Origin: Cladosporium sp. IMV 00045
Taxonomy: Eukaryota; Ascomycota; Dothideomycetes; Cladosporiales; Cladosporiaceae
Reading direction: 5' to 3'
DNA length: 64,000 nucleotides
NCBI GenBank assembly: GCA_001931905.2
Contig: MSJI02000052.1
Location: 1 to 64,000, forward strand
Shown: one piece after another, positions 32,069 to 58,605 of the stretch
Position numbering within the stretch: position 1 is the stretch's first letter
How the letters are laid out: the number at the start of each line of letters is the position of its first letter
The notes under the pieces: model-generated
Database searches by the model: none
Told to the model about the DNA's origin: nothing
What the model saw: the letters and a program-made list of their open reading frames with translations, nothing else
Translations under genes and position numbers: made by a program

Positions 32069-32471
32069 GATTTGCTGCGAAGAGTCGATGTTTGGTTTTC
32101 TTGGATGTAGAATGTGTGGGAATCAAGTTTGCTAAATATCAAATCAGCCTTTAGCGATTATATGATAACATGCAGTGTTAGATGATCTTTTGTCTTTGTT
32201 CTCCTTCACCTACAACGCATCGTGAAGGCGTGCACTAGGTGTCAAGCATTCAATGTCTTTATCTCAGACCAATACACAAAGGCTCCTTTGTCTTTTGTGT
32301 TATCAATGTTCACTTGCAACAATCTTGAATACCGTGTCTGTTGTATCAGTATTTCTGGGGCTCCTTCATTTCTGTTTTTTGTCATCTGGAGCTGACTTTC
32401 GATTCAGCGTAGGAGTTCACAATCAAACAAAGCCTGATACAAGTTTCGACGAACGGAGACATCTCAGAAAC
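32069..32471. other. Intergenic, divergent promoters
   Basis: About 400 bp between a minus-strand and a plus-strand gene. The frame upstream of 32472 is open but not conserved as protein in copy 2, so it is treated as leader. Confidence 0.5.
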
Positions 32472-32828
32472 ATGCAGTCTTGTGTTGGGGACAATTCTGA
32501 CGAGCAATCTAGCTGTACGTTCAGCGCGCTCTTACAGGCCGAAGTCCAAGTCGTTGAGGACATGATTGACTGTACGCTCCTAGACATGGCGAACAGTGGA
32601 TACGCCCATCCTGTTTCTAGTTCTGAGGTTGCACGAACGTTGCAAGACATTCGAGAAATGGGCGAGCTCCCTGCTGTGCCTCGGGACGGCCAAGCAAGTT
32701 TGACTATCAAGTGTTCAGTGCCAGTTGTAACCGAAGAAAAAAGGGCCGTCGCTAGACTGACCCGGGCGTGGGATAAATTGGAAGACTTGAGATACGAGTT
32801 TGAGCAAAGTCATGGTAGAATTCAGTAG
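32472..32828 (+). CDS. Small conserved orphan protein (copy 1)
   Basis: Not recognised. 118 residues starting MQSCVGDNSDEQSSC, with an acidic helical middle (EAEVQVVEDMIDCTLLDMA in copy 2 spelling differs slightly) and a charged helical C-terminus (KRAVARLTRAWDKLEDLRYEFEQ). Copy 2 has the same length and start, with mainly conservative changes, which argues that it is coding. No signal peptide or membrane segment. The reading frame extends upstream without an ATG shared by both copies, so the start at 32472 is preferred. Confidence 0.5.
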   Translation: MQSCVGDNSDEQSSCTFSALLQAEVQVVEDMIDCTLLDMANSGYAHPVSSSEVARTLQDIREMGELPAVPRDGQASLTIKCSVPVVTEEKRAVARLTRAWDKLEDLRYEFEQSHGRIQ

Positions 32829-33179
32829 GTACGATGTATTTCGACAAATAGTTGCCATGGACACCCTTCACATGATTCGTCAATAGTAAGAATGTGCGAC
32901 TGAGCGCAGCATTCACATGTGAAGTCAAACTCTTTTGCGACCTAGACTCGAGAGTGAGTGTTCTTCCACCGCATTTCACTACAACATGAGAACCACTACT
33001 CGATGCGCATACAACATTCGAACCCTAATCAGACTGCAAAGCGTTCGCATCGGCATAATCGGTCAAGGTATCACAATCTATAGCAGTAATCGACTGATCG
33101 ATCCATTTCTAACGTCCAGCTCAGCTCTCAATATTCGGCCACCTTCCCAACCTTCCGGCGACTGAAAGACCACAGCAAA
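32829..33179. other. Intergenic, no gene recognised
   Basis: About 350 bp between two plus-strand small genes. It should hold the promoter of the single-pass membrane protein. Nothing else seen. Confidence 0.5.
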
Positions 33180-33521
33180 ATGGTATCGCAGGTCAACGCA
33201 ATCAACGCCATTCCTCGCCACGAAACCGAAGTCATTGCCTCTGAGACAGGGAACGGCCAACCGCTGTTGGGGCTTCTCGTCATTCCGGTCGTTCTTCTGT
33301 GTATCTCTGTTGCAGCTGGTCTGTGGTACTACAAGAAACGCACGAAAAAGCGCCTGGAGAAACAAAAGGCTAACGATGCAGCCGAAAGAGTGAGGTCGCG
33401 ACAGGCATGGCTTTGGTTGGCTGAAGAGAGGATGGTTCAAGAAGACAGAGCAAATGCTCTGGCAATGCTCGAGGGGCGCATACCAGAGAACACAATGACG
33501 GTGAGAGCTTATGGGTATTAG
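33180..33521 (+). CDS. Small single-pass membrane protein (copy 1)
   Basis: Not recognised. 113 residues with one strong membrane segment (about 28-51, LLGLLVIPVVLLCISVAAGL) followed at once by a strongly basic stretch (YYKKRTKKRLEKQK) and a charged helical cytosolic part. By the positive-inside rule the short N-terminus would face outside and the C-terminus the cytosol. Copy 2 has the same protein with a six-residue N-terminal insertion (TKQSIM) before PRHETEV. The tail RIPENTMTVRAYGY is identical in both. The start ATG sits in a CAAAATGG context in both copies. Confidence 0.6.
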   Translation: MVSQVNAINAIPRHETEVIASETGNGQPLLGLLVIPVVLLCISVAAGLWYYKKRTKKRLEKQKANDAAERVRSRQAWLWLAEERMVQEDRANALAMLEGRIPENTMTVRAYGY

Positions 33522-34011
33522 GCATTGTTGGTGGAATCCAGTGAAAATGATTTGGTGCACCAGAGTCGAGTCATGAGCGGACACCAGGTGCTGATGCCCA
33601 TGAGCACTTCCTTGACTGAAAGGTACCAATTGCATATCAAATGAACATTTTCTTGCACCGTTCGTGAAGAACATGTAGTCCGTAGTAATCAATTGAGCAG
33701 CTGTTGGGATTTGCTTCCTGTTACACAATCAGCGCATGCATGCGCGGGTGGCTGCTGTCACACGGTAACACGCAGAAGGCTGTAAACAAATGACGCTCGT
33801 GAATAAACATAGGCCTCACTTTCGTAAGCGGTGAGATTTAGTTTGCTTCACGTGCTTTCTCATTCACCTGTCAGTCAGTAGACGTTCGCAAAACTCACAA
33901 CGCTGAGCGACTGAGCCTGCCTGCCAAATAACAAACAAGCTCCTTCCACTTTGCACGAAACTCGAACAAAACACCTCTACAACATCGAAAGCACTTCTGA
34001 TCGCCAAAATA
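33522..34011. other. Intergenic, no gene recognised
   Basis: 490 bp between two plus-strand genes, well conserved in copy 2 (49992-50478) but without a shared reading frame. It should hold the promoter of the Ser/Thr-rich protein. Confidence 0.5.
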
Positions 34012-34486
34012 ATGGCCGCGACCACTGATATAACCAACAGCCCGGGCGCTGCTACTGGTAATACTCTCGAGCACAATACCGTCACTGTACACCTCAATGA
34101 TACTGACTCGTGCGACAGCAGCGACATCTTCTATGATGGCCTACCCAACTGAAACGTCCATGTGGTTCCCTGTCATCGACGATGAAGGCGACGACGGCCC
34201 TCTGTCTATCTACTCGTCTGGCACTTGCAACGCGACTCGAGCGACCTCTTCATTCTTTGCACCGACTGGCTCTATGGCCTCCGAGTCCTCAATCACCGTC
34301 GCCACCTCCAACACCAGCTTCACCACGCCGCCACTCTCCAGCTCAAGCACCTACACCACCTCTTCGGCCATCGCAGCAACGGCTTCCGGCGCTGCTCATG
34401 GATCCCTCGTTCTGAGCGCAGGGTCAGGTGTTTCTGGCCTTGCGCTTCTGGTCATGTGCTTCTTCGCCCTCGGCCGCCACTTGTAA
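34012..34486 (+). CDS. Ser/Thr-rich protein with C-terminal hydrophobic tail (copy 1)
   Basis: Not recognised. Coding is join(34012..34057, 34119..34486), 137 aa; the 61 bp intron (GTAATA..GACAG) is supported by copy 2, where the equivalent intron has a clear GCTAAC branch point. The body is rich in Ser, Thr and Ala (SSFFAPTG, SSITVATSNTSFTTPPLSSS), likely O-glycosylated or disordered. It has an acidic DDEGDDG patch and a C-terminal hydrophobic segment (about 115-133) ending in GRHL. No N-terminal signal peptide is visible, so a tail-anchored protein is more likely than a GPI-anchored one. Copy 2 keeps the same structure. Confidence 0.55.
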
Positions 34487-34766
34487 CAAGTGGCTAGAAG
34501 CTGGCGGTGAATGAACGCCTCTATATCACAAAGCGTAGGATGGGCAGACACGACAAATAATTCAGGCATACTTTCTTGATGACTTTGGTCCGCCGATTTG
34601 GAAGAAGGGAAATGATCGATGGAGGTCAGGGCGATGTCTAGACAGCCATAGATAGTGATTCTGAACGATTGAAATACCTGCACAGAATCCAAAGTCTCGA
34701 AACGCTACAAGCTTCGTCGTTTAGCTTGAGCTGGTGCCGCCAGTCCTGCTCTTTGGTTGATGTTTG

Positions 34767-35588
34767 CTATAAGCTCAGTAACCTCGCCCTCTTCAGATAC
34801 TCGTAAAGCGACCAAGCAGCCAAAGTCTTGCCATCTCTCGCGCCAATTTGCAGCAAACGTTCATAGTTCATCAAGCGAACAGTGATCTTCTCCTGATGCC
34901 CCCTTTCGCCCGCCAAGCGATCCTTCAAATCGTCAATCTCCGTGCGTTCTTTCTCTTGCTCCCACAAAAAGATCTTGATGAACTCATCGCACGCGCCTGG
35001 GCTGGGATACATTGCATCCTTGACATAGCCCTGCGTGCTGTGGTCTTTCAAAGCCAGAGCAGTCATGTCGATCAAGTCGTTCTTGTTCAGCTTGATGCCC
35101 ACCTCTTCCTTGATCTCTCGCGCAGCTTCTCCGACAACGTCATTGTGGTCATCCAACATTCCAGCAGGAATCTCAAGGAATCGTAGACTTCCTGCGGCCG
35201 GCCGCGGTTGCTCTGTCATCACGACATATCGTTCGTCTGGTGCGTCGAATGGCCGCAGGATCATCAGTACCGTGACACTGCCGCCGCGCAAGAAGACAAC
35301 ACCAGGGAGGGTGTCACCATCTTTGTTTTCGATTTGAGCAAAGATTTTGACGAAGAGCAAGCGCTCTCTTCCACGATCGAAAGAGTCGACTCTGATGTGC
35401 TTGAGATTGTATGGCCCTTCGTTGAATGGATGGTCGTGGTGCTTTTGTTCCTCGATCGAGACTTTCAGGGCAGCTTTCCAGTCGACGAAGGGCCTGAATT
35501 GGAGCAACTCCTCTTCATCAAGTCCAGGAAGATGCTTGATCGTGACTGCAGGGTCCCAATCTGCCAGCTGAGTTGTTGAGTCAGGCAT
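34767..35588 (-). CDS. Nudix hydrolase, ADP-sugar/ADP-ribose pyrophosphatase-like (copy 1)
   Basis: Predicted Nudix hydrolase that would cleave ADP-ribose or ADP-glucose type substrates to AMP and sugar phosphate. The 273-residue frame has no intron. The Nudix box lies at 143-165 (GMLDDHND then VVGEAAREIKEEVGI): G143, R157, E158, E161, E162 and G164 are in place, while the position usually held by Glu after G-x5 is Asn, as in the plant NUDT14-like GMLD-type boxes. EIPAG precedes the box and a PSPGACDEFIKIFLWEQE segment follows, both typical of the ADP-sugar subgroup. It is divergent from the HET gene, 574 bp away, so the two may share control sequences. Copy 2 is intact and nearly identical. 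Confidence 0.85.
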   Translation of the reverse strand: MPDSTTQLADWDPAVTIKHLPGLDEEELLQFRPFVDWKAALKVSIEEQKHHDHPFNEGPYNLKHIRVDSFDRGRERLLFVKIFAQIENKDGDTLPGVVFLRGGSVTVLMILRPFDAPDERYVVMTEQPRPAAGSLRFLEIPAGMLDDHNDVVGEAAREIKEEVGIKLNKNDLIDMTALALKDHSTQGYVKDAMYPSPGACDEFIKIFLWEQEKERTEIDDLKDRLAGERGHQEKITVRLMNYERLLQIGARDGKTLAAWSLYEYLKRARLLSL

Positions 35589-36162
35589 TTGAGTTCGAGG
35601 TTGCGAAGTTGCCTAGGTGTGTAAGTGGTACTTGATGGTATGCGGGACTGCAGTCTTCACTTTGGCAGAGAAAGTATACCCACGAGACCCAGACGAGACG
35701 GCAGGGTTAGGTGCATGATGGGGCGCAGTACTTTAACGAATCGGGCCCGGCCTGCAATTGTCCGGTGTGTTGTTTGAAACGAGGTCAGCCCACACCTATC
35801 AGAAGTCGGCCAAGTCCGGTTTGCCCTGCATAGCACTACAGTCACCCCACGCGGCTTCTTTGCGCCCCATAATCATAAGTGGTACCGATTGGTGATATGC
35901 AAGAGGTACTGCATGATGCGTTGGAGCATCCTATCTGAGCGTCAGCTCTGCATCCGAAACGATAGCAGTCACATCTCCTGTCAGCGGTCGGATCTTTTGA
36001 TTGTCCACACGTGGTCGGCGTGATGTTTGGTGGCCCCAGTACAGTGCAACTATTAATGCCGGATCAAGATCACTATTTCGTTCTTGAAGTGGTGAGCTCA
36101 TTTGATCATGCTCCGACTCGTTTCCATTACTCTCACTTACTTCGGACTCTTTCCTGAATATC
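35589..36162. other. Intergenic, shared upstream region of Nudix and HET genes
   Basis: Head-to-head promoter region of 574 bp. It is well conserved in copy 2 except near the HET end, where the copies diverge (about 36085-36155 versus 52515-52595). No regulatory motif is named with confidence. Confidence 0.55.
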
Positions 36163-38474
36163 ATGATATGTGAAATCTGCTATGGCATGCTGCGAGGCCA
36201 CAAGGGCAGAAGGTGGAGGCGAACATATGAGCTTCACTTCGATCATCAAGCGAGCGGATTTGCGATTCGTGCGTCTGCTGTAGCAGGCTGCTGTTTCTGC
36301 AAAGTTTTGGCGGAGGTCCTGGAGAGCCAGGGTTGCTCGGTAGGTATCTTGTTGCTTTCGCGAAAAGCGCAATGACAAAATATGACTGACCTAGCCTAGG
36401 CACGGGAGATAGATCCACTGGCTACCACCCAAGCCTTTCTTTCTGAAGTGCCTCGTCGCCAAGGTCTCTACCGACTAGATTTTCGCCTTGGAGACTCAAG
36501 CCCATTGGCTACGTTCTTTCTAGAGCAGCTTCGTGAGTAGCTTCCCCAGCGTTGCTCTAACCATGATCCAGCGCTGATTCTATAGATGACGGTCCGGATG
36601 CTCAGGTCTACACACCATCCACGGAAAACACTAGCTCCCAAGAAGTGCTCCAATTGGCACGGTCGTGGATCGCCACTTGTACGGGTCCAGAGCATTCCGG
36701 ATGTCCGAACGAGTCGTTCGAGAGGTGCAATGGAGACTCAACAAGATATTATCCGACGAGACTCATCAAGTTGCCGCCGTACCATTCGAAGCCGTACGAA
36801 GCGGACGATATCAGGAAAATCAAAGTTGAACTGGTCCACACCAATGGTCAGCCGAACCAGCCTCCGCAACCCGACACGATGAATGTAAATGGCACCCTAC
36901 AATCTCCGACTGGTAGCTCAGAGGTGCAGCCGGAGGTTTTCGGTCCATGGCAATATGTCACGTTAAGCCACTGCTGGGGCACATGCCCCTTCCACAAATT
37001 GGAGATTGACAATCTCGAGGACTTCGAGAAAGGTGTGCCTCTCGCCGAGCTGCCGAGGTCTTTTCAAGAAGCAATGGATTTCGCTTCGCGGCTGCGCAAA
37101 GATGTCAGGTACATCTGGATTGATGCCTTATGCATCATCCAAGACAGCGACGAAGACTGGAAGAAGGAGAGTGTCAAGATGTATGACGTCTACCGCAACA
37201 GTTTCTGCAATATCTCGGCAACGCATGCATGTGACAATAGTGAGGGGTTGTATCGGACGAGAAATCCACAGCATCTCTGGGAGGATGAGATCAGACTGAA
37301 TACAGAAGGAATACCAACGCCATTTCCTCAGAAGAGTCGGCTGGGTGCTGAGCCGCTATTACGTCGCTGTGGGATTTTGGATGCGACCTCTTGGGCTCGC
37401 ACAATCGAGGACGCTTCAGTGAATGTTCGTGCTTGGGTTCTTCAAGAAAGGCTGCTGGCGCCCAGGGTTTTACACTTCGGTCGTCATCAGATAGCCTGGG
37501 AGTGCTGTCATCTCGAAGCAACAGAGAGTCTGCCTTACGGCACTTCAGATCTGCAGGTCCAGGGTGGAATCGTTCTGGAAAAGACAAGCCTCAAATCGTC
37601 ACTTCCTCGAGAATACGGACCACGGTCTTTGGTGCCCGATTCCGAACATCTAGCCCGGCAAGCGCACGAGTGCTGGAAGCGTATCATCGAACGTTATTCC
37701 ACTACCAACATCACCAAGGAGAGTGATCGTCTCATCGCTCTGGCAGGTATCGCCCAGATGATATCCAGACAGATTGGCAAAAGGGTCTGGTACGTTGCTG
37801 GGCTGTGGGAGAAATGGCTTGCTAGCCAACTTCTCTGGCGAGTCAATAGCGCATACGCAGACGGCACCTATTCGTTTCCCCAACGCCGTGCCAGAAACTA
37901 CATCGCGCCAACATTCTCCTGGGCTTCAATCCTCGCAAAACAGGGTGTCCGATGTGGGGAGACCGTGAATGAGGACCGCTTGTTATTCTCGGTCAAACAC
38001 ATCAATATACCACCAAAGAAGGAAGAAGACCGTTTCAGCGTGATCGCGGGCGACGAGCCAGCCACCTACGTCGAGCTGAGCGGCCTGCTTGCAGCGATCA
38101 ATCTCGTAAGAGGCAAAGGTTGCAGCACCAACAGGTATCGATGGAATCTGGCCAACGGCGACTACAACCCGAAGAGAGATCTCTCTGGTCTGCATCTTGA
38201 CAGCCCAGAAGATGATGCAGCTTTCTTTGGAGCAGCCCAGCCCGGACTCTACTGCATGCCGGCTTACAGCAATTCCAAGGACTACACCATTTGTCTGATT
38301 TTGCGGATTGTCAATCAAGAGGAGTTGTTGCCTCATTACAAGCGTGTGGGGCTGGCTATGGTGCCAGCATATGAAGCCACGCAACTTGCTCTTGAGAGGG
38401 CCAAGACCGTGGGCCCGTCATCGAGCGACGGAGTGAAGGGAGGGTGGCACAATGTGCATCTTAGGCTGTACTAA
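36163..38474 (+). CDS. HET-domain protein (heterokaryon incompatibility type), copy 1
   Basis: HET-domain (PF06985-type) protein; such proteins trigger programmed cell death in fungal non-self recognition. Coding is join(36163..36339, 36400..36532, 36586..38474), 732 aa; introns are 60 and 53 bp with GTAGGT/GTGAGT donors. Seen: an N-terminal Cys/His segment (MICEIC..GCCFC) common before HET domains; the HET domain from about residue 226 with QYVTLSHCWG, LPRSFQEAMDFASRL, RYIWIDALCIIQDSDEDWKKE and YRNSFCNISATHA; and a long C-terminal region with AWVLQERLLAPRVLHFG and WECC, as usual for the family. It lies upstream of the SIR2-like gene on the same strand. Copy 2 encodes the same length, with a cluster of replacements at 172-267. 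Confidence 0.9.
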
Positions 38475-39007
38475 TTTCTGGCGTCGGATAGCTTGGAGCG
38501 GGCGTGATCTAATGAGAATTCACGGATGCAGGTGTTGTGAATCAGTTGCATGCGTTTGCTGCACAAACGAATAAATAGGCCCTCAGGCTTGCGAGTGTTG
38601 GTGGGAGATTGCGATAACACTCATCGCACGATCGTGTTCCACGACACGTCTCGACCGGTTCAATCATGCCAGCCTCCACAAAACACCTGCGGGCGTGAGC
38701 TGTACCGACGCCATGCATATTAGGCGAAACGTCAGCTGTGTAAAGCGACTTGCAGATGAAAGATTGGCCTGGCCGCTCTGCAGGATAAGCGAAGGCAATC
38801 AGGCGACTGATTGCCTACCAACAGTCTCCGGTGAATGCAGTTTCGTGCGAACCGAACAGAGCTGTCTTCGGTACGACTTTAACGTACCTTGGTCAATAAG
38901 AGCTGAGCAGACCGATCATTCAATGTAACGCAAAGCTCAATCTACCATCACTCTCCCCATAATCCTTTTTGGTATCTGCTTGATCCATAGCAAGAGCATT
39001 CCCAGAA
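38475..39007. other. Intergenic between HET and SIR2-like genes
   Basis: 533 bp with the HET 3' region and SIR2-like promoter. The last 80 bp are almost identical in copy 2. No gene supported. Confidence 0.55.
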
Positions 39008-42000
39008 ATGGAAACCGAGCACCCCAACATCATCTCGCAAGCCTTCGAGACAGGACTCTTGAAGGATGACGACCAGGAGAATCTCGGCTGGGCGTCCATG
39101 AAAGACGAAGTCAATTCAATGTTGGAGAAGTCCGAAAACCAAACAACGTTGTTTCTCGGAGCTGCGGCTTCTTCGTTCAAGCCAACCTGCTTTCCGGCCT
39201 GGGATAAGTTCATAGAGCTCATTTACACCTGCCAAATTCGGCAGGCTGTTTCTGAGCTTGAAGGCGACACGACCGGTTCGTGGTTCACGGTTCATCCTGT
39301 CAGTGAGGGAATTCCGGTGTTTGACTAACTCTTGTCTCAGAATTTGAGGAATCCTTGAAGCAGAGCATTTCTCAAGGCCTTGATTACTCCAACCCGCACA
39401 GAGTACCGAATTACAAAGTCACCGAGACGCTTGCCCGCCGCCTTGGAAAGGACTACTTGCGTCTTCTGGAAGCTTTCAAGTCAAGGCAGGACGGCGATGG
39501 GTGGCTCATCAACCACGTGCACAAGTGGGCTGCCGAATGCTTGATGAGTGGAGGCGCCATGTCCATCGTCACCACGAACTTCGACGACTGTATCGAAAGA
39601 GCCCTGTCAGCTGCGGGCGCGAACTCATACCTGCTCACTGGTGACCATCGTCAAGATGGTCTTGAAATTGAGCGGTTGCTCCAATCGACGGACAAACGTC
39701 TGATACTGATCATCAGCGGCCCGAAAGCATGTCACTTCGCACAGAACATGCTTCCTCGGCTAGGCAAGTCGGTGGGATTCATTTACAAGCTTCATGGGTC
39801 GTGCTACGCACCCGACTCTTGCATCGACACAAGGCTTCAGAGGCAGCAGGGACTTCCCGCGTATTCTGTCGATATTCTCGATTTCCTCCTCGCGAGGAGT
39901 GTCTTCTTCATCGTGGGGTTCAGTGGAGGTGATCTGAACGACAACACAGACTACCTCCGCATGATCCACAATAAGCGCCAGGCGAAGCTTGTCTGGTTGC
40001 AATACAGAGGAGACTTGATCGAGCCTGGTGTAATGAAATTGCTCGACGCGATGAAAGACGAGATGAGTATCGGTCAGGGCACGAGCCGAGCAATTTTGCG
40101 TCGCGTACATGGATCGATCACTGGCCAACGTGTGCGCTGGAATGAGGAGCCTTCCGAGTTCAAACAGCACGTCGTCGAGTGGTGTCGCGGCCTCGGCACT
40201 TCATGGTGCAAGCTCGTCGTGCTTGATTTGTTGGAGCTGTGTGGTCAGAGGGAGGCACAACGGGAGAAACTCCGGAGGCTGGGATTCGTCAAAAGCCATC
40301 GTCAAGATTGGAACGACATTGTTGAGTTGGTGGAGAAGTCGCCGGTTGAAGTTCAGCAGGTGAGTTGGAGAAGACTTGGAATCTTCCAAGTGAAGTCCTA
40401 GCCGTGCTAATTGTCACCAGCTTGCGAAAACAACGGCATGCATGATGACAACTCGTCTGCTTCGTGGCTTCTTGGAAACGCGTCAAAGCAGCGATCGTCC
40501 ATCTAGCTTGACAACGCTCTTCGAAACACAGCGACTCGAAATTCGAGAGCAACACTTCGAAGCTGCAGGCAATTCCAACACTGCCCTTACGCATGCGCAG
40601 GACTGGGTACTCAGCGCCTTGTACGGAGTGTTGCTATACTGTGGTGGCCAGGATCAAGCAGCCAAAGAGATCCTCTCGTATGCTCGTAATGCCGCTTACT
40701 TGGTGGGAGATCTTCAATCGCATCAAATGATAAGCGAATTGATCTCGGGTCTGCCTTTCGCTGCAAAACAGTCGCCGGCCTCCTCTCCGACAAAGGCGCA
40801 GTACAAGCCGGACTCATCCATACTCGCCTTCTTGCCATCACTGGACAATGTCAGCGCCAAGGCGAATCAATATGGTATTCCTCCGGGACTGTTCGCCCGA
40901 GCCATGTTGCACGGGGCGATGCTTTTCGCTGATCGCATAGCGGTCAATTCGAACGTGCTCATTAATTCGGCTGTGTTCATAAACGAAATTCTTTTCGGCG
41001 GTCGCGAAGAGCTGAGTAGCTTCTACCTCGAATTCCTGCAGCCAGTCATCGTCTCGGATAATCCGGATGAAGCGCAGCCAATTCGGGCAATGCACCGCGC
41101 ATCAAATTCTAGACTGGATTACATGTCCGAGAAAATGGCAGCGAGCCACATGGCCCAGATGGACAACTTTTACCTCGCCACCAGAGCGGACAACCGCTTT
41201 CTGTTCAATAAGATGTCTGATTTGGAGAGCAACTATCGCCGGTGGATGCGGCGAGCTGCAACAACCGAGCGCGTTGGGACTCGGGATCATCTCTTAACCC
41301 AGTGGAGGAGCCGTGACATTCATTACGGTAGTGCTTCTGTTGTCATCGAAGCTGATGATGCGCTTGCAGCTGGCATGGTTGACACCGTCTTAGAAGTTGT
41401 CGACCTCTTCACAAAGAATCTGAAAGGTCCGCTCACGAGATCGAAATTGTACAGTGTGGCGGGGCTCTTCGTCAAACTCGCAGACGACGACGAAGCTATT
41501 CGCAAGCAATTGAGGGATGACATCGACCAGGCCTCTGTTGGCACGCTAATTTCCGGTCGCCAGAAAATTCTCGAACGACCATGGCTGTCTGGGCCGATCT
41601 GCCATGAACTCTTCGATGTGCCCTATCGATATAATCCGATGTTTCAGCAACTGATCAGTGGTGAATCATCGACGAGCATCGTGTTTCTCGAGCCTCACGA
41701 GGTGCCTTCCATGCAGTTCATGGCTAAGCTCGCGCGTCAGGATGTAGGATTGAACATGTATGACGGCGCCGTGACCGCGGGTGTGAGTGGGCAGGCATCG
41801 GCGATCCTTCTTGCGCAGGCATCAGAGGAGGACATCACGACATGCCGCAAGGGCCTTGTTCCCCTACGTCAGAGAATCTTGGAGCATACCACGCTGGATG
41901 CCGAGAGCATGGAGATTCTGGTTGAACAATTGGGAGCGTTCAAGCGGGAAGCAGCTGATGCAGAAGACACAGAAATCACCATGCTTGCTGCGTTGGACGA

Positions 42001-42136
42001 GGATGCCGGGCGTATTCTGCTTGAATTCTTAGAGCATTGCACGTTCATCCTTCGCAAGGGAGAGCCGTTGGACCGGATGTACGAACAGCCAGAGCTCACG
42101 TTGCCGGGCGTGCTGAAGCTGGTGCGCGTGCACTGA
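39008..42136 (+). CDS. SIR2-like (STALD/SIR2_2-type) NADase-domain protein, 1000 aa, copy 1
   Basis: Predicted SIR2-like protein of the conflict-system type rather than a classical histone deacetylase. Coding is join(39008..39275, 39341..40359, 40421..42136), 1000 aa; introns are 65 bp (weak GTTCGT donor, GACTAAC branch) and 61 bp. Seen: TLFLGAAASS (47-56) as the nucleotide-binding glycine loop, VTTNFDDCIE with N169 and D171 matching the TxNxD ribose site, YKLHGS with H241 in the catalytic His position, and VGFSGGDLND (281-290). No sirtuin Cys4 zinc module is seen. Residues about 430-1000 form a long, mainly helical region with no recognised domain. The known family includes bacterial anti-phage NADases; NAD cleavage here is inference. 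Copy 2 has the same length and exon sizes. Confidence 0.75.
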
Positions 42137-42459
42137 AATTTGTTTGTGGCATATTTTGCTCCATATGGTGAGCAAGAACGAAGAATGACCACTATTTTCA
42201 CAACTGCTCAATATATCAATACATGTGTTTGAGGCAGCACTAAGCTGATGTCGGAGAAGGCTGATGAGTGAAGTCGAAGTCGAAGTCGAAGTCGAAGTCG
42301 AAGTCGAAGTCGCCGCGGGAGTGCCGTGCCCTTTCCGGCTTGTGGAGCAACTCCAATTTTGAGCGCCTCTCGCCATGCTGCTCACTTCATCTCTCCTTGC
42401 TCCATTACACTTCTTCTATCCCAACCTTTTTCCTTTCTTGTTTCATCACATCCATAATA
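42137..42459. other. Intergenic upstream of mS45 (copy 1), with microsatellite
   Basis: About 320 bp with the SIR2-like 3' region, the GAAGTC repeat and the mS45 promoter. The frame through the repeat joins mS45 but is leader sequence. Confidence 0.6.
42270..42311. repeat. GAAGTC microsatellite, seven units (copy 1)
   Basis: Seven perfect tandem GAAGTC units about 150 bp upstream of the mS45 ATG. Copy 2 has three units at the same place (58738-58755). Confidence 0.95.
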
Positions 42460-43028
42460 ATGCCTCCCCGCATACAGCCTACAAGGCTGCCGCTGCCTTC
42501 ATCATGTCAATGCCTTCGCACCCAATCCTCAATCCTCCCCGAAGGATACCTCTCTTCACGCTCTTTCCACGCTTCTCCTCCCTCGCTTGAGGGCAACCTT
42601 GATGAGAAGAAGACCAGCGACAAGCGCCGGTCGACGAAGTTACGTCGCGACATGAAGGAATGGCTGGCGGGCCCTGGCTTCAGGTTTCGCAGACCGCGTC
42701 CTGATGGCACGAATTATCTCTCTGCGTACAACAAGGCCGGCCAGCTCAAGCGTGCAGGCAGGGCCCGAGTCAGCGCAGAGCTACCCACGCCCGCCGAGGT
42801 GGCGGCCACTGAAGAAAAGGTGCAGAGACAGGAAGTGGCGGAAGGCATTGATGAGGCAGAGCGGACTGAGAGGGCAGAAGCACGTGCCGCTGAACGTGCG
42901 AGGCAGGCCGCCAACGCCAGACGAACGCCCAAGGAAACGGCAGCAGATCTGCGCCCATTTCCCTTGAACCACAATTTTAGGAGTCAGCCGGTCCTCTCGG
43001 AAGAGCTCAGAGACGAGCTCTACGGACA
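42460..43028 (+). CDS. Mitoribosomal protein mS45 (Bot1/Mrps35-type), 3' truncated by N gap (copy 1)
   Basis: First 189 codons of the mitochondrial small-subunit protein whose complete copy is at 58902-60328. It starts MPPRIQPTRLPLPSS with a mitochondrial presequence (SRSFHASPPSLE), followed by DKRRSTKLRRDMKEWLAGPG and a charged helical region, and stops at the gap after ELRDELYG. The sequence differs from the other copy at only a few residues. The remainder of the gene is not visible at this place; it either lies in the gap or never existed here. The open frame that continues through the Ns into the ABC transporter is an artefact of the gap length. Confidence 0.85.
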
Positions 43029-43048
43029 NNNNNNNNNNNNNNNNNNNN
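43029..43048. other. Assembly gap (20 N) at the junction of the two large copies
   Basis: Twenty unresolved bases. The left side ends in mS45 and the right side begins in the ABC transporter, at the exact borders of the duplicated segment. The true gap size is unknown. Confidence 1.
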
Positions 43049-45046
43049 TGTTCCTCTTGATCAGCAGCGGTGTCACCATGAGCGTGCCATTTTCCATCGG
43101 AAGAATTCTGGACGTCGCCAGCAAGCCTCCAGAGGAGAACGCGACATTCCTGGGAATGTCCATGAACACTTTCTACATTGCTTTTGCGGCGGTCTTGGCC
43201 ACTGGTGCTTGCGCGAACTACGGACGTATTATCATTCTGCGTGTCGTTGGCGAGCGCATTGTCACGAAGCTCAGAAGTCAATTGTTCAGGCGAACTTTCG
43301 TGCAGAACGCGGAGTTCTTCGATGCGAACCGCGTTGGCGACTTGATCAGCAGACTTGGAAGCGATACTATCATTGTCGGCAAGAGTATTACGCAGAACGT
43401 CAGCGATGGTCTTCGCTCGCTCGTCTCTGCCGTTGCTGGTTTCTCGATGATGGCTTTCATGTCTGTCAAGCTTACCGGTATCCTCGCTGTTGCGGCGCCG
43501 CCGGTTGCTGTTGGTGCTTTCTTCTACGGTCGTGCCATCCGGAACTTGTCAAGGCGCATTCAGAAGAACCTCGGAAACTTGACAAAAATCGCAGAAGAGC
43601 GTCTCGGCAATGTTCGAACCAGTCAAGCATTCGTCGGAGAGCTGCAAGAAGTCAATCGCTACAACAACCAGACGCGCAAAATCTTTTACCTCGGCCGCAA
43701 AGAAGCACTTATTAGTGCAGTCTTCTTCTCGGCTTCTGGTTTTGCTGGCAACATGACGTTCCTCGCGCTACTTTATGTCGGCAGTGGAATGGTTCACAGC
43801 GGTGCTATTTCCGTTGGTGACTTGACGAGCTTTTTGATGTACACTGCCTACGCTGGCAGCAGTCTGTTCGGTCTCAGCAGCTTCTACAGCGAGCTGATGA
43901 AGGGAGTCGGTGCTGCAACCCGTCTTTTCGAGCTGCAGGATCGCACTGCAACCATCAGCCCAACCAAGGGAGACATGGTCAAGAGCGCGCGTGGCAACAT
44001 CGAATTCGACAACGTCAAGTTTGCGTACCCGACTCGCCCAGCCGTGACGATCTTCGAAGACTTGACTTTCACCATCCCTCAAGGCAGCAATGTGGCGATC
44101 GTTGCGCCCTCTGGAGCTGGAAAGAGTACAGTGGCAAGCTTGCTCTTGAGATTCTACAACCCTGACTCTGGCACCATCAAGATCAACGGCAAGGACATCA
44201 CCCAGATGAACGCTAAGCAATTGAGACGAAGAATCGGATACGTCGGACAGGAGCCTGTGCTCTTCAGTGGCACTATCGCGCAGAACATCGCTTATGGCAA
44301 GCCGCAAGCAACTAGACAGCAGATCTTGTCTGCAGCTCGCCAGGCCAACTGCCAGTTCATTCAGGACTTCGTGAGTTACCTCAATCCCTTTGTTCAATGA
44401 AGACCACTAACACATACTGCAGCCTGATGGCCTGGACACCTCTGCCGGTGCACGCGGTACGCAGCTCTCCGGTGGTCAGAAGCAGCGCATCGCAATCGCA
44501 CGCGCCCTACTCAAAGACCCCGATATTCTAATCCTCGACGAAGCCACCTCAGCACTCGACGCCGAGTCCGAAACCCTCGTTAACCAGGCTCTCGGCCGCT
44601 TGCTGAAAGGTAACAACACCACGATCTCCATCGCCCACCGTCTGAGCACGATCCAGCGCAGCGACATCATCGTCTGCATCGGCTCCGACGGTCGCGTCGC
44701 CCAAGTTGGAAGCTACACCGACCTCTCCGCCGACAAAGAGGGCGCGTTCGCCAAGCTGATGGAATGGCAAATGACCGGTCCAAACTCGTCTCCTGCGCAA
44801 TCTTCCTCCTCGGAGCCCAGAGGTGAGGTCAGAGAAGAGGAACACAAGCACGAGCACGAGCTTACTGAGGAAGATCGCATGCGCATGCGCATGGAAGAGC
44901 ACGATCGCGCCAAGCGCCTCGAGAGCAGTGAGGCTGCTGAGCAAGCTGCTGTCGAGGAGGAGGAAGGCGAGGGCGCGGCTGTGAGGAAGGAAAAGGAGAC
45001 CAGTGCGGAGGCTGTTCTTGAGAAGAGCAAGGGTTCTGATCGATGA
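43049..45046 (+). CDS. Mdl1/ABCB10-type ABC transporter, 5' truncated by N gap (copy 2)
   Basis: Second copy of the mitochondrial ABC transporter, starting at the codon equivalent to residue 181 of copy 1. Coding is join(43049..44370, 44423..45046) from the second base of a codon; the 52 bp intron is at the same place with a GTGAGT donor. Walker A, LSGGQ, Walker B and H-loop are all intact. Amino-acid changes are few (for example SQ to NQ near 43662, EG to ED near 44060, SAEKEG to SADKEG, SPSQ to SPAQ), while third codon positions differ often. Nothing indicates decay other than the missing 5' end, which coincides with the gap. Confidence 0.88.
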
Positions 45047-45683
45047 TCTTGACTTACGCTACGCCTTCTGGCCTTGCGTGTCGCGATAGAGCGCTAGCTT
45101 CACCCGGGCAGTTCTTGTTTCTTCCTTCGCCCGCCACTACTCTACTCATCTCTTTGCATTGTTTCATTTTTCTGCTTTTTCTCTTCATCCATGAACGTTT
45201 TCTTACGAAACGTTTTAGAGCATATAGGGCGTTTGACGAGTGGTCATCACGTCGGATGGGTGGAAATGTTCTTCATACGGACGAAAATGTATAATATTCA
45301 AAAAGTTTCAGATTTATTCGTCTGAGCGGAATGATTTCTTGCTTTGTTTATCGGTTGCTTGACACAGACCTAGTAGCAATAGCTAGGGTAAAGGAATTCA
45401 CTTGGCGGTTCATGGTACGTTTGATACTTGAAAGGGAAGCGGAATTTGTTCGAATGGTTCTGGATACACTTTAATCTAAACAAGACACGACAAAACAAAA
45501 TAACTGAGGACAGTATGCTGCAAGAAAGTCAACCCTCGACAATAAAGAAGACTCAACAAGACAAGATCGGCAATAGTATGCAGCAAAACCTCAATCTCCA
45601 ACCAGACACTGTTCTTGCCCCTTCCTATCAGCTGCATCAATGACAGTAGAACTTCCTCGAAGCATCATGCACACATTCCGCAT
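45047..45683. other. Intergenic (copy 2), ABC 3' region
   Basis: Equivalent of 27668-28315; has a single unit of the sequence that is tandem in copy 1. No gene supported. Confidence 0.5.
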
Positions 45684-46379: not shown

Positions 46380-46438
46380 ATGCTCACTCAGTCATGTGAA
46401 ACCACATCAATCCTCCATCGTTTTCTCCGATCATGTAG

Positions 46439-51210: not shown

Positions 51211-52032
51211 CTATAAGCTCAATAACCTTGCCCTCTTCAGGTACTCATAAAGTGACCAAGCCGCCAAAGTCTTGCCATCTCGCGCGCCAATCTGCAGCAA
51301 ACGTTCGTAGTTCATCAGACGAACAGTTATCTTCTCCTGATGTCCTCTTTCACCCGCCAAGCGATCCTTCAGATCGTCAATCTCCGTGCGTTCTTTCTCT
51401 TGCTCCCACAGGAAAATCTTGATGAACTCATCGCACGCGCCTGGGCTGGGATACATTGCATCCTTGACATAGCCCTGCGTGCTGTGGTCTTTCAGAGCCA
51501 AAGCAGTCATGTCGATCAAGTCGCTCTTGTTCAGCTTGATGCCCACCTCTTCCTTGATTTCTCGCGCAGCTTCTCCGACGACGTCGTTGTGGTCGTCCAG
51601 CATTCCAGCGGGAATCTCCAGGAACCGTAGACTTCCTGCGGCCGGGCGTGGCTGTTCTGTCATCACGACATATCGTTCGTCAGGCGCGTCGAACGGCCGC
51701 AGTATCATGAGAACGGTGACGCTGCCGCCGCGCAAGAAGACAACGCCAGGAAGGGTTTCGCCCTTTTTGTTTTCGATTAGAGCGAAGATCTTGACGAAGA
51801 GCAAACGCTCTCTTCCACGATCGAAAGAGTCGACTCTGATGTGCTTGAGGTTGTATGGCGCTTCGTTGAATGGATGATCGTGGTGTTTTTGCTCTTCGAT
51901 TGAGACTTTCAGGGCCGCTTTCCAGTCGACGAAGGGCCTGAATTGGAGCAACTCCTCTTCGTCAAGTCCAGGAAGATGCTTGATCGTGACTGCAGGGTCC
52001 CAATCTGCCAGCTGAGTTATTGAGTCAGCCAT
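51211..52032 (-). CDS. Nudix hydrolase, ADP-sugar/ADP-ribose pyrophosphatase-like (copy 2)
   Basis: Counterpart of 34767-35588, same 273-residue length and no indel. Replacements are very few (for example PDS to ADS at the start, EGPY to EAPY, AQIENKDGD to ALIENKKGE, NKND to NKSD). The Nudix box is identical, including the Asn in place of the usual Glu. It is divergent from the copy 2 HET gene across 573 bp. Strong protein conservation against many silent changes suggests purifying selection on both copies. Confidence 0.85.
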   Translation of the reverse strand: MADSITQLADWDPAVTIKHLPGLDEEELLQFRPFVDWKAALKVSIEEQKHHDHPFNEAPYNLKHIRVDSFDRGRERLLFVKIFALIENKKGETLPGVVFLRGGSVTVLMILRPFDAPDERYVVMTEQPRPAAGSLRFLEIPAGMLDDHNDVVGEAAREIKEEVGIKLNKSDLIDMTALALKDHSTQGYVKDAMYPSPGACDEFIKIFLWEQEKERTEIDDLKDRLAGERGHQEKITVRLMNYERLLQIGARDGKTLAAWSLYEYLKRARLLSL

Positions 52033-52605
52033 TTGAGTTCGAGGTTGCGAAGTTGCCTAGGTGTGTAAGTGGTACTGGATGGTATGCGGGACTGCAGTTT
52101 TCACTTTGGCAGAGAAAGATACCCACGAGACCCAGACGAGACGGCAGGGTTAGATGCATGATGGGGCGCAGTACTTTAGCGAATCGGGCTCGGCCTGCAA
52201 TCGTCCGGTGTATTGTTTGAAACGAGGTCATCCCACACCTATCAGAAGTCGGCCAAGTCCGGTTTGCCCTGCACAGCACGACAGTCACCCCACGCGGCTT
52301 CTTTTGCGCCCCATCATCATAAGTGATACCGATTGGTGATATGCAGGAGGTACTGCATGATGCGTTGGAGCATCCTATCTGAGCATCAGCTCTGCATCCG
52401 AAACGATAGCAGTCACATCTCCTGTCAGCGGTCGGATCTTTTGATCGTTCACACGTGGTCGGCGTGATGTTTGGTGGCCCCAGTACAGTGCAACTATTAA
52501 TGCCGGATCAAGATCACCATTCGTTCTCGAATCGGCGGTCTCGTTTGACCATGCTTCAATCGACCACCAATTCTCCCACTTATGTTCATTTTTCCTTCGA
52601 CTATC
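52033..52605. other. Intergenic (copy 2), shared upstream region of Nudix and HET genes
   Basis: Equivalent of 35589-36162. It is close to copy 1 except for the last 90 bases before the HET ATG, which are clearly rearranged or diverged. Confidence 0.5.
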
Positions 52606-54919
52606 ATGATATGTGAAATTTGCTATGGCATGCTGCGCGGCCACAAAGGTAGGAGGTGGAGGCGAACATATGAGCTTCATTTTGACCATCAAGCGAGCGG
52701 GATTGCGATTCGTGCGTCAGCCGTAGCAGGCTGCTGTTTCTGCAAAGTTTTGGCGGAGGTGCTGGAGAGCCAAGGTTGCTCGGTAGGCATCTTATTCCTT
52801 TCTCGAAAAGCTTTAATGAAGAAGACATGACTGACACAGCCTAGAGACGGGGGATAGACCCGCTTGCCACCACCCAAGCCTTTCTTTCTGAAGTGCCTCG
52901 TCGCCAAGGTCTCTACCGACTAGATTTCCGCCTTGGAGACTCAAGCCCTTTGGCTACGTTCTTTCTGGAGCAGCTTCGTGAGTAGCTTCACCAGCGTTGC
53001 TCCAACCATGATCCCTTGCTGATTCTACAGATGACGGTCCGGATGCTCGGGTGTACACACCGTCCACGGAGAACACTAGCTCCCAAGAAGTGCTCCAATT
53101 GGCACGGTCGTGGATCGCCACTTGTACTGGTCCAGAGCATTCCGGATGTCCGAATGAGTCGTTCGAGAGGTGCAATGGAGACTCAACAAGATACTACCCA
53201 ACGAGACTCATCAAGTTGCCGCCGTACCACTCGGAGCCGTACGGAGCGGAAAATATCCAGAAAATCGAAATCACATTGGTCCATACCAATGGTCAGCCTA
53301 ACCAGCCTCCCCAATCCGACACGATGAATGCAAATGGCATTCTGCAATCTCCGACCGGTAGCTCAGAAATCCAATTCGAGGCTTTCGGTCCATGGCAATA
53401 TGTCACGTTGAGCCACTGTTGGGGCACATCTCCCTTCCACAAATTGACGATTGACAATCTCGAGGCCTTCAAGAAAGGTGTGCCTCTCACCAAGCTGCCC
53501 AAATCTTTCCAGGAAGCAATCGATTTCGCTTCACGGCTGCGCAAAGATGTCAGGTACATCTGGATCGATGCCTTATGCATCATCCAAGACAGCGACGAAG
53601 ACTGGAAGAAGGAGAGTGTCAAGATGTATGACGTCTACCGCAACAGTTTCTGCAACATCTCGGCGACGCACGCATGTGACAATAGCGAGGGGCTGTACCG
53701 GAAGAGAGATCCGCAGCATCTCTGGGAAGATGAGATCAGATTGAATACAGAAGGGATACCAACATCATTCCCTCAGAGGAGTCGGCTGGGTGCTGAGCCG
53801 CTACTTCGCCGCTGTGGTATCTTGGATGCGACCTCTTGGGCTCGCACAATCGAGGACGCTTCAGTCAATGTTCGTGCTTGGGTTCTTCAAGAAAGACTGC
53901 TGGCGCCCAGGGTTTTAAACTTCGGTCGTCATCAGATAGCCTGGGAGTGCTGTCGCCTCGAAGCAACAGAGAGTCTGCCTTACGGTACTTCAGATCTGCA
54001 GGTCCAGGGTGGAATCGTTCTCGAAAAGACAAGCCTCAAATCGTCACTTCCTCGAGAGTACGGACCACGGTCTTTAGTGCCCGACTCCGAACATCTAGCC
54101 TGGCAAGCCCACGAATGCTGGAAGCGCATCATCGAACGCTATTCCACCACAAGCATCACCAAGGAGAGCGATCGTCTCATTGCTCTGGCAGGTATCGCCC
54201 AGATGATATCCAGACAGATTGGCAACAGAGTCTGGTACGTGGCGGGACTGTGGGAGAAATGGCTTGCTAGCCAGCTTCTCTGGCGGGTCAACAGCGCCTA
54301 CGCGGATGGGACTTATTCGTTTCCACAGCGCCGTACTAGGAACTACATCGCCCCAACATTCTCCTGGGCTTCGATTCTTGCAAAGCAGGGCGTTCGGTGT
54401 GGCGAGACCGTAAGAGAGGACCGCCTGCTTTTCTCGGTCAAACGCATCAACATACCGCAGAAGTCAGAGGAAGACCGTTTCAGCGTGATCGCGAGCGACG
54501 AAGCAGCCACTTACGTCGAGCTGAGCGGGCAGCTTGCAGCAATCAATCTCGTGAGAGGCAAAGGTTGCAGCACCAACAGGTATCGATGGAATTTGGCCAA
54601 CGGCGACTACAATCCGAAGAGAGATCTCTCGGGTCTGCACCTTGACAGCCCGGAAGATGATGCAGCTTTCTTTGGGGCAGCCCAAACCGGACTCTACTGC
54701 ATGCCGGCATACAGCAATTCCAAGGACTACACCATCTGTCTGATCTTGCGGCTCGTCAACCATAAAGAGTCGCCGCCTCGTTACAAGCGTGTGGGGCTGG
54801 CTATGGTGCCAGCGTATGAAGCCACGCAGCTTGCTCTGGAGAGAGCTAAGACCATGGGCCCATCATCGAGTGACGGAGAAAGAGGAGGGTGGCACAATGT
54901 GCATCTCAGGCTGTTCTGA
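52606..54919 (+). CDS. HET-domain protein (copy 2)
   Basis: Coding is join(52606..52782, 52845..52977, 53031..54919), 732 aa, with exon lengths identical to copy 1. The Cys/His N-terminus and all HET blocks (YVTLSHCWG, LPKSFQEAIDFASRL, RYIWIDALCIIQDSDEDW, NSFCNISATHA) are intact. Compared with copy 1, 22 residues differ within 172-267 (linker and start of the HET domain), only one within 104-171, and about 28 over the 465 residues after 267. The uneven pattern is unlike the other genes of the block. It is followed by the SIR2-like gene on the same strand. Confidence 0.9.
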
Positions 54920-55476: not shown

Positions 55477-58400
55477 ATGGAAACAGAGCACCCCAATATC
55501 ATCTCGCAAGCCTTCGAGACCGGGCTTTTGAAGGATGACGACCAGGAAAATCTCGGCTGGGCGTCCATGAAGGACGAAGTCAATTCAATTTTGGAGAAGT
55601 CTGAAAACCAAACAACATTGTTTCTCGGAGCTGCGGCTTCTTCTTTTAAGCCAACCTGCTTTCCAGCCTGGGATAAGTTCATAGAACTCATCTACACCTG
55701 TCAGATTGAGCAAGCTGTTTCTGAGCTTGAAGGCGATACGACGGGTCCGTATTTCACGGTTGATCCTGCCAGTGAGGAGGTTCGTGTGATTGACTAACTC
55801 TTGTCTCAGGATTTGAGGAATCTTTGAAGCGGAGCATTTCACAAGGCCTTGACTACTCCAACCCGCACAGAGTGCCGAATTACAAAGTCACCGAGACGCT
55901 TGCCCGCCGTCTCGGAAAGGACTACTTGCGTCTTCTGGAAGCTTTCAAGTCAAGGCAAGACGGCGATGGGTGGCTCATCAACCACGTGCACAAGTGGGCG
56001 GCCGAATGCTTGATGAGTGGAGGCGCCTTGTCCATCGTCACCACAAACTTCGACGACTGTATCGAGAGAGCATTGTCAGCTGCAGGCGCAAACTCGTACC
56101 TGCTCACCGGTGATCATCGCCAAGATGGTCTTGAGATCGAGCGCTTGCTCCAATCGACAAGCAAACGCCTGATACTGATCATCAGCGGCCCGAAAGCATG
56201 CCACTTTGCGCAGAACATGCTTCCTTGTCTAGGCAAGTCGGTGGGATTTCTGTACAAGCTCCATGGGTCATGCTACGCCCCCGATTCTTGCATCGACACA
56301 CGGCTTCAGAGGCAGCAGGGAATTCCCGCGTACTCTGTCGATATTCTCGATTTCCTCCTCGCGAGGAGTGTCTTCTTCGTCGTGGGGTTCAGTGGAGGTG
56401 ATCTGAACGACAACACAGACTACCTTCGCATGATCCACAACAAGCGCCAGGCGAAGCTTGTCTGGTTGCAATACAGAGGGGATTCGATCGAGCCTGGTGT
56501 GAAGAAATTGCTCGACGCCATGAAAGACGACACGAGTGTCGGCCAAGGCGCCAGTCGAGCAATCCTGCGTCGCGTGCATGGATCCATCACTGGCCAACGA
56601 GTGCGCTGGAATGAGGAGCCTTCCGAGTTCAAACAGCACGTCGTCGAGTGGTGTCGCGGCCTTGGGATTTCGTGGTGCAAGCTCGTTGTGCTTGATTTGC
56701 TGGAGCTTTGTGGTCAGAGAGAGGCACAGCGGGAGAAACTCCGGAGGCTGGGATTCGTCAAAAGCCATCGTCAAGATTGGAATGACATTGTTGAGTTGGT
56801 GAAGAAGTCGCCGGTTGAAGTTCAGCAGGTGAGTTGGAGAAGACCTGAAATCTTGAAAATGAAGTCTAAGCCGTGCTAATTACCACTAGCTTGCGAAAGC
56901 GACGGCATGCATGATGACAACTCGTCTGCTTCGTGGCTTCTTGGAAACACTTCAAAGTAGCGATCGTCCATCTAGCTTGACAACGCTCTTCGAAACACAG
57001 CGACTCGAAATTCGAGAGCAACACTTCGAAGCTGCAAGCAATTCCAACACCGCCCTTACGCATGCGCAGGATTGGGCACTCAGCGCCTTGTACGGCGTGT
57101 TGCTGTATTGTGCTGGCCAGGATCAAGCAGCCAAAGAGATCCTCTCGTATGCTCGTAATGCCGCTTACTTGGTGGGAGATCTACAATCGCATCAAATGGT
57201 AAGCGAACTGATCTCGGGTCTGCCTTTCGCCGCAAGACATTCGCCGGCCTCCTCTCCGACAAAGGCGCAGTATAAGCCGGACTCATCCATACTCGCCTTC
57301 TTGCCATCACTGGACAATGTCAGCGCTAAAGCCAACCAATACGGTATCCCTCCAGGACTGTTCGCCCGAGCCATGTTGCACAGGGCGATGCTTTTCGCTG
57401 ATCGCATTGCGGTGAGTTCGAATGTGCTCACCAATTCGGCTGTGTTCGTGAACGAAATCCTTTTCGGCGGCCGCGAAGAGCTTAGTAGTTTCTACCTCGA
57501 ATTCCTTCAGCCAGTCATCGTCTCAGATAATCCGAATGAAGCGCAGCCAATTCGGGCAATGCACCGCGCATCAAATTCCAGACTGGATTACATGTCCGAG
57601 AAAATGGCAGCGAGCCACATGGCCCAGATGGACAACTTTTACCTCGCCACCAGAGCGGACAACCGCTTTCTGTTCAATAAGATGTCTGATTTGGAGAGCA
57701 ACTATCGCCGCTGGATGCGGCGAGCTGCAACAACCGAGCGCGTTGAGACTCGGGATCATCTCTTAACCCAGTGGAGGAGCCGTGACATTCATTACGGCAG
57801 TGCTTCTGTTGTCATCGAGGCTGATGATGCGCTTGCAGCTGGCATGGTTGACACCATCTTAGAAGTTGTCGATCTCTTCACGAAGAACTTGAAAGGTCCG
57901 CTCACGCGATCGAAACTATACAGTGTGGCAGGGCTCTTCGTAAAAGTCGCAGACGACGAAGAAGCCATTCGCAAGAAACTGAGGGATGACATCGACCAGG
58001 CGTCTCTCGACACGCTCATTTCCGGTCGCCAGAAAATTCTCGAGCGACCATGGCTGTCTGGACCGATCTGTCATGAACTCTTCGATGTGCCCTATCGATA
58101 CAATCCGATGTTTCAGCAACTGATCAGTGGAGAATCATCGACGAGCATCGTGTTTCTCGAGCCTCACGAGGTGCCTTCCATGCAGTTCATGGCTAAGCTC
58201 GCGCGCCAGGATGTAGAACTGAACATGTATGACGGCGCCGTCACCGCGGGTGTGAGTGGGCAGGCATCGGCGATCCTTCTTGCGCAGGCATCAGAGGAGG
58301 ACATCACGATATGCCGCAAGGGCCTTGTTCCCTTACGTCAGAGAATTTTGGAGCATACCACGCTGGATGCCGAGAGCATGGAGATTCTGGTTGAACAATT

Positions 58401-58605
58401 GGGAGCGTTCAAGCGGGAGGCAGCTGATGCAGAAGACACAGCAATCACCATGCTTGCTGCGTTTGACGAGGATGCCAGGCGTATTTTGCTTGGATTCTTA
58501 GAGCATTGCACGTTCATCCTTCGCAAGGGAGAGCCGTTGGACCGGATGTACGAACAGCCAGAGCTCACGTTGCCGGGCGTGCTGAAGCTGGTGCGCGTGC
58601 ACTGA
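55477..58605 (+). CDS. SIR2-like (STALD/SIR2_2-type) NADase-domain protein, 1000 aa, copy 2
   Basis: Coding is join(55477..55744, 55810..56828, 56890..58605), 1000 aa, with exon and intron lengths the same as copy 1. The NAD-site residues are conserved: FLGAAASS, VTTNFDD, YKLHGS and GFSGGDLND. The first intron again has a weak donor (GTCCGT), with a GACTAAC branch point and CTCAG acceptor; failure to splice it would end the protein after 106 residues, as in copy 1. The helical C-terminal region is retained without indels. The gene is complete and shows no decay. Confidence 0.75.

What the first reader, a model, noticed from the sequence alone, without database searches (positions are those of the whole stretch)
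34767..42136. Candidate NAD-centred fungal immune or allorecognition module: Nudix <-> HET -> SIR2-like
Within about 7.4 kb lie a Nudix hydrolase of the ADP-sugar/ADP-ribose subgroup, a HET-domain cell-death protein and a SIR2-like protein with NAD-site residues but no visible sirtuin zinc module. Established: HET domains act in fungal incompatibility; SIR2-like domains of this type act as NAD-depleting effectors in bacterial anti-phage systems; Nudix enzymes can remove ADP-ribose. Inference: the three may act together, with HET and SIR2 as sensor or effector and Nudix clearing or modulating the ADP-ribose product. All three are intact in both copies, while neighbouring orphan genes decay.
Basis: partly seen in the sequence, partly recalled or inferred. 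Interest (0 to 1): 0.82.

Follow-up and report, generated by a model that had tools for sequence, protein, structure and literature searches.

The report
Conserved fungal HET–Nudix locus with SIR2
In a mould genome, a cell-death gene and an enzyme gene of the ADP-ribose-cleaving kind sit back to back, lie together in many other fungi too, and here have an immune-type NAD-cleaving protein gene as a third neighbour, which suggests an undescribed NAD-based self-destruct circuit in fungi.

Summary
The three genes are real. Divergent Nudix (34767-35612, -) and HET (36163-38474, +) genes are followed by a 1000-aa SIR2_2 protein gene in three exons (39008-42136, +). The "second copy" is not a duplication: it is the homeologous or allelic contig (about 90% identical), placed in line by the scaffolder between two 20-N gaps. 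Three genomes from three classes carry the pair on consecutive locus tags. The SIR2-like gene is rare (10 database hits), yet 5 of those 10 share a contig with a listed HET or Nudix relative. So HET–Nudix is a conserved two-gene locus with SIR2 as an optional third. The closest precedent is Podospora het-B, a HET gene beside an adenine-nucleotide-sensor gene. Best mechanism: HET is a TIR-like cell-death or signal enzyme, Nudix restrains it by cleaving an ADP-ribose-type product, and SIR2 is an extra NAD-consuming effector. The linkage is shown. The biochemistry is inferred, and a guarded-partner role for Nudix remains a serious rival.

The parts
34767..35612 (-). Nudix hydrolase gene, copy A, single exon; likely start codon at about 35588 (MPDST...); Nudix box GMLDDHNDVVGEAAREIKEEVGI
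   Evidence: PF00293 E=1.6e-7; only 2 loci in the genome match this protein, copies A and B; profile hits ADP-ribose/ADP-sugar pyrophosphatases in the PDB
35613..36162 (.). intergenic stretch between the divergent Nudix and HET genes (about 0.57 kb from start codon to start codon), possible shared promoter
   Evidence: gene models; promoter role is inference
36163..38474 (+). HET-domain gene, copy A; exons 36163-36339, 36400-36532, 36586-38474; 732 aa; C-terminal part carries PTFSW, like the PSWSW motif of TOL/PIN-C-type HET proteins
   Evidence: searches (exons; PF06985 E=5e-28), motif described in passages of PMC10890737
39008..42136 (+). SIR2-like (SIR2_2) gene, copy A; exons 39008-39275 (or to 39302), 39341-40359, 40421-42136; 1000 aa; SIR2 domain in the first ~430 residues, the last 571 residues match no Pfam family
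42460..43028 (+). 5' part of a Bot1p/mitochondrial-ribosomal-type gene (PF12298), cut by the scaffold gap; the same neighbour is fused to the SIR2-like protein in the Cladosporium fusiforme annotation
   Evidence: P0001 Pfam column
43029..43048 (.). 20-N scaffold gap, the junction between block A and block B
51211..52056 (-). Nudix, copy B (98% identical protein)
53031..54919 (+). HET exon 3, copy B (92% identical protein)
55477..58605 (+). SIR2-like gene, copy B; exons 55477-55744, 55810-56828, 56890-58605 (96% identical protein)

Best explanation
A conserved fungal cell-death locus. Core: a HET gene and a divergent Nudix gene of the ADP-sugar/ADP-ribose group, inherited together. The HET protein (a distant TIR relative) makes an NAD-derived, ADP-ribose-type product or depletes NAD when triggered and so causes cell death. 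The Nudix enzyme keeps it in check by hydrolysing that product. In some lineages a SIR2_2 protein is added as a further NAD-consuming effector. Shown: the genes, their motifs, and recurrence of HET+Nudix and of SIR2 with either. Inferred: every enzymatic step, the direction of control, and that SIR2 works in the same pathway.
Against: No biochemical data. No HET domain has a shown NADase activity in the passages read ('currently unknown'). The HET model gave no significant PDB match and no TIR row (inconclusive). The first Glu of the Nudix box is Asn here. Nudix and HET are each single-gene hits on a bidirectional arrangement that could be kept for shared regulation only. Linkage is not universal: Macrophomina phaseolina, Diplodia seriata and Aulographum hederae have listed Nudix and HET rows on different contig lengths. 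The Cladosporium fusiforme and F. pedrosoi Nudix and the Lindgomyces HET are not in the listed top 120.
Confidence: 0.4

Rival explanations
1. Guard or trigger pair: the Nudix protein is the monitored or interacting partner of the adjacent HET protein, as PII-like BP is for BH at het-B, and its enzymatic activity is not the point. Alteration or a foreign variant of Nudix triggers HET killing.
For: Podospora het-B: adjacent HET and PII-like genes interact, and their clustering is conserved in 28 of 31 taxa having both (passages of PMC10890737). A conserved small partner next to a faster-evolving HET fits: Nudix dN/dS 0.033 against HET 0.116.
Against: No population polymorphism data here. The Nudix catalytic acids are invariant in 26 rows, which a mere tag would not need (though a housekeeping enzyme would).
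Confidence: 0.25
2. Neutral or regulatory linkage: an old head-to-head gene pair kept by a shared promoter or by slow local rearrangement. Nudix is housekeeping, and SIR2 is an unrelated neighbour.
For: Distance matrices of the 29 linked pairs plus the window agree (Mantel r 0.66, maximum of 2000 permutations 0.23), but plain vertical descent gives the same. In this genome alone adjacency is not surprising (0.47 expected within 5 kb). Mesosynteny is raised as an alternative for the het-B pair too.
Against: Recurrence across at least three classes by locus tags, in a gene family known for high turnover (passages). The rare SIR2-like gene falls on HET or Nudix contigs in 5 of 10 hits, against a control mean of 0.05, including F. 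pedrosoi of another class.
Confidence: 0.2
3. The duplicated locus is a real tandem duplication under selection for dosage.
For: Two near-complete copies in one scaffold.
Against: Both copy junctions coincide with 20-N gaps; C39 carries the upstream of block B at 98.5% over 267 bp; block A resumes after the second gap. The PF00118 search gave 18 matches, about twice the nine genes that I recall for a haploid fungus.
Confidence: 0.03

Closest known systems
Podospora anserina het-B locus (Bh HET-lectin + Bp PII-like)
   Same: HET gene tightly paired with a conserved gene for a nucleotide-related small protein; the pair recurs across Pezizomycotina (passages of PMC10890737)
   Different: Partner here is a Nudix hydrolase, not PII-like; the HET C-terminus has a PSFSW-type motif rather than the lectin fold; a SIR2-like gene can be added; no allelic incompatibility is known
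Thoeris (bacterial TIR ThsB + SIR2-SLOG ThsA)
   Same: TIR-related protein next to a SIR2_2 protein (analogy; ThsB/ThsA description in passages)
   Different: HET is only a remote TIR relative; no SLOG or Macro domain found by Pfam in the SIR2-like protein; ThsA models match only weakly (E 0.005-0.02); Nudix has no place in Thoeris
Arabidopsis NUDT7 restraining TIR/EDS1 cell death
   Same: A Nudix enzyme acting as negative regulator of TIR-triggered death (passage)
   Different: Unlinked plant genes, another Nudix subfamily; substrates reported there are 2',3'-cAMP/cGMP
Vertebrate FAM118A/B and bacterial antiphage SIR2_2 proteins
   Same: Same Pfam domain SIR2_2, NAD-site motifs (passages)
   Different: 1000-aa fungal family with its own C-terminal 571 residues; closest PDB sequences only at E 0.014

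Membership tests
HET domain (PF06985) | Pfam HET domain above gathering score | tested here: met
   98.7 bits against cut-off 22.5
HET domain as TIR-fold NADase | TIR-like fold | tested here: inconclusive
HET domain as TIR-fold NADase | NAD+ cleavage | not testable with these tools
   Needs an assay
SIR2_2 (PF13289) | Pfam SIR2_2 above gathering score and NAD-site Asn/His motifs | tested here: met
   38.7 bits against 24.5; VTTNFD, YKLHG, GFSGGD
Canonical sirtuin | two CxxC pairs (zinc module) and PF02146 | tested here: not met
   0 CxxC in the window protein; only SIR2_2 listed at E<=5
Nudix hydrolase (PF00293) | Pfam NUDIX above gathering score | tested here: met
   31.8 bits against 21.1
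Nudix hydrolase (PF00293) | Nudix box GX5EX7REUXEEXGU (recalled motif) | tested here: inconclusive
   REIKEEVGI present, first E replaced by N; E166/E170 invariant and E169 nearly invariant in 26 rows
ADP-ribose/ADP-sugar Nudix subgroup | nearest characterised enzymes are ADPR/ADP-sugar pyrophosphatases | tested here: inconclusive
   Profile: 23 PDB sequences at E<=0.01, mostly ADP-ribose or ADP-sugar pyrophosphatases, best 1.8e-5; single sequence: none at 0.001; NCBIfam hits far below cut-offs
Thoeris | SLOG or Macro sensor fused to SIR2 (ThsA) | tested here: inconclusive
   No Pfam family in the C-terminal 571 aa at E<=5; structure model too poor to search (pLDDT 48)
Thoeris | TIR-domain ThsB | tested here: inconclusive
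   Neighbour is HET, only remotely TIR-like by the literature
het-B-type HET plus PII-like pair | adjacent partner is a PII-like protein | tested here: not met
   Adjacent partner is Nudix PF00293, the only Pfam family listed at E<=0.1

The most novel reading that the evidence does not exclude
A fungal NAD-signal immune circuit of Thoeris-like logic: HET (TIR-like) makes an ADP-ribose-type messenger, the SIR2_2 protein is switched on by it and drains NAD, and the Nudix enzyme destroys the messenger as the built-in off-switch. The older HET–Nudix core, kept across Pezizomycotina, would be the ancestral messenger/eraser pair.
Probability: 0.15. Interest if true: 0.92.

Novelty: new variant of a known kind. 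Interest (0 to 1): 0.7.

Why it matters
How HET domains kill is stated to be unknown in a 2024 paper (passage of PMC10890737), although HET is among the most abundant domain families in moulds (passage of PMC10197012). A Nudix partner of the ADP-ribose group, kept beside one HET lineage across classes, points to a substrate class and gives a simple two-gene test. The SIR2_2 member would add a fungal branch to the NAD-depleting immune proteins known from bacteria and vertebrates.

Tried and rejected

Literature limits: searches (open-licence PMC only, no preprint collection) listed no paper describing a HET–Nudix pair. The pair search gave 7 papers, of which I read passages of one, PMC12210691; it mentions heterokaryon incompatibility once, in passing. 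No paper was read whole: passages only of PMC12881547, PMC10197012, PMC12210691, PMC9815663, PMC12700824, PMC9153377, PMC9503650, PMC10890737 and PMC11412873; the others were seen as listings.

Full report
What is there. The window lies at C52:1-64000 of a 49.87-Mb genome in 954 contigs. Between 34.8 and 42.1 kb lie a Nudix gene (-), a HET gene (+) and a SIR2_2 gene (+); domain scores are above Pfam's cut-offs. The gene models were rebuilt from splice signals: HET has three exons from 36163 (732 aa), SIR2-like three exons from 39008 (1000 aa; 1009 aa with the alternative donor). Nudix and HET are divergent, with about 0.57 kb between start codons. The SIR2-like domain has the NAD-site motifs and lacks CxxC pairs; its last 571 residues match no Pfam family at E<=5.

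The two copies. A BLAST of the window with itself gives 29829-43028 against 46305-59470 (90.0%) and 25670-28919 against 43049-46287 (90.7%), with a run of 20 N at 43029-43048, exactly at the junction. On the longer contig a second 20-N gap at 77004-77023 ends block B, after which block A resumes (59960-64004 against 77024-81093, 91.5%). Contig C39 is 90.4% like A 15976-25936, and its first 267 bases match the start of block B at 98.5%. So block B is the homeologous or allelic contig of A, put in line by the scaffolder. The PF00118 search gave 18 matches, about double the nine that I recall for a haploid fungus. Contig C297 repeats A 14902-25816 at 100%. Identity of A and B rises toward the contig end (99.5% in the last 200 bases), so the 3' part of the comparison (SIR2 C-part dS 0.17 against 0.33 for the N-part) may be partly collapsed assembly.

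Selection between copies. NG86 dN/dS: Nudix 0.033, HET exon 3 0.116, SIR2-like 0.089: all under constraint, none diversifying between the homeologs.

Recurrence. Searches of the protein collection gave 891 Nudix relatives (120 listed), 2495 HET relatives (120 listed) and 10 SIR2-like relatives. Each row gives the length of its longest contig. 28 of 120 listed Nudix rows share that length with a listed HET row; shifting lengths by 1 to 100 bases either way gives a mean of 0.3 and a maximum of 3. Of Nudix rows on contigs of 3.5 kb or more, 28 of 74 are linked; 14 of the 28 are on contigs under 20 kb and 8 under 8 kb. A 29th pair is shown by locus tags, Paraphaeosphaeria sporulosa DPSP01_012683/012684. 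Consecutive tags also join Geoglossum simile M1840_004156/004155 and Venustampulla echinocandica BP5553_07477/07476. These are Dothideomycetes, Geoglossomycetes and Leotiomycetes. For the large contigs without neighbouring tags, a shared contig does not prove adjacency. Because 120 of 891 and 120 of 2495 rows were seen, the count is a lower bound; the length is that of the longest contig of a 90% cluster, so misses and rare chance matches occur. Species with both rows listed but on different lengths: Macrophomina phaseolina, Diplodia seriata, Aulographum hederae.

The SIR2-like gene. Of 10 hits, 5 share a contig length with a listed HET or Nudix row (control mean 0.05, maximum 1): C. fusiforme (HET; tags 009472/009473), Lindgomyces ingoldianus (Nudix), Teratosphaeria nubilosa (both), an unnamed 19-kb contig (Nudix), and Fonsecaea pedrosoi (HET; tags 11237/11240). 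The other 5 show none: an unnamed 3.9-kb contig, F. multimorphosa, Aspergillus caelatus, and two short contigs that look bacterial. F. pedrosoi is in Eurotiomycetes, the others named are Dothideomycetes. The C. fusiforme SIR2-like annotation runs into the same PF12298 gene that follows here, so that case may be plain synteny of near relatives. Motifs are kept in most of the seven fungal rows compared, with exceptions (A. caelatus has TTDFD; T. nubilosa lacks the exact GFSxxD string).

In this genome. The Nudix protein matches only its own two loci. 86 HET and 27 NUDIX hits exist; by chance about 0.47 Nudix would fall within 5 kb of a HET, and one locus (in two copies) does. The case therefore rests on other genomes.

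Co-descent. For 29 linked pairs plus the window, Nudix and HET distances correlate (Mantel r 0.66; maximum of 2000 permutations 0.23), as expected if they travel together, though shared species descent alone would do. Linked rows occur in both halves of the HET tree (9 of 56 rows and 20 of 66 rows), which fits an old linkage with losses or unlisted partners; the label is not significantly clustered.

Mechanism. Passages read say that HET is a remote TIR relative with a conserved functional glutamate, that HET is sufficient for cell death and that how it kills is unknown; that TIR domains cleave NAD+ to ADP-ribose derivatives; that Arabidopsis NUDT7 suppresses TIR-triggered death; and that phage Nudix enzymes are proposed to remove ADPr signals. 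The Nudix profile is nearest to ADP-ribose and ADP-sugar pyrophosphatases in the PDB, though weakly. From this I infer the off-switch reading at 0.4. The guard-pair reading, modelled on het-B, gets 0.25, neutral linkage 0.2, and the rest is left open.

Novelty. HET genes paired with a nucleotide-related partner are known (het-B). A HET–Nudix pair, with or without SIR2, was not found in the searches named under Tried and rejected, so I call it a new variant of a known kind.

Noticed in passing
L009:961-3369 (G000:C879, about 41.1-43.5 kb): A SIR2_2 frame followed in the same frame by two NPHP3_N/NACHT-type NTPase frames: it looks like a fungal NLR with a SIR2 N-terminus. The text of PMC9815663 on fungal NLR effectors has 0 occurrences of SIR2.
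   Followed up: partly
L010 (G000:C656:41220-41684, -): A further SIR2_2 match in broken frames with one in-frame stop; no similarity to the window's SIR2-like protein by tblastn.
   Followed up: partly
G000:C297:28000-38914: Exact repeat of window 14902-25816, a redundant contig.
   Followed up: partly
G000:C731:54755 and 59798: Another Nudix and another HET match lie 5 kb apart; chance is not excluded.
   Followed up: no
G000:C52:65639-66100 and 82089-82562: Two further HET matches on the same contig, beyond the window.
   Followed up: no
window 42829-43028: Identity of A to B rises to 99.5% next to the gap, as if the two copies had been collapsed at the contig end.
   Followed up: partly
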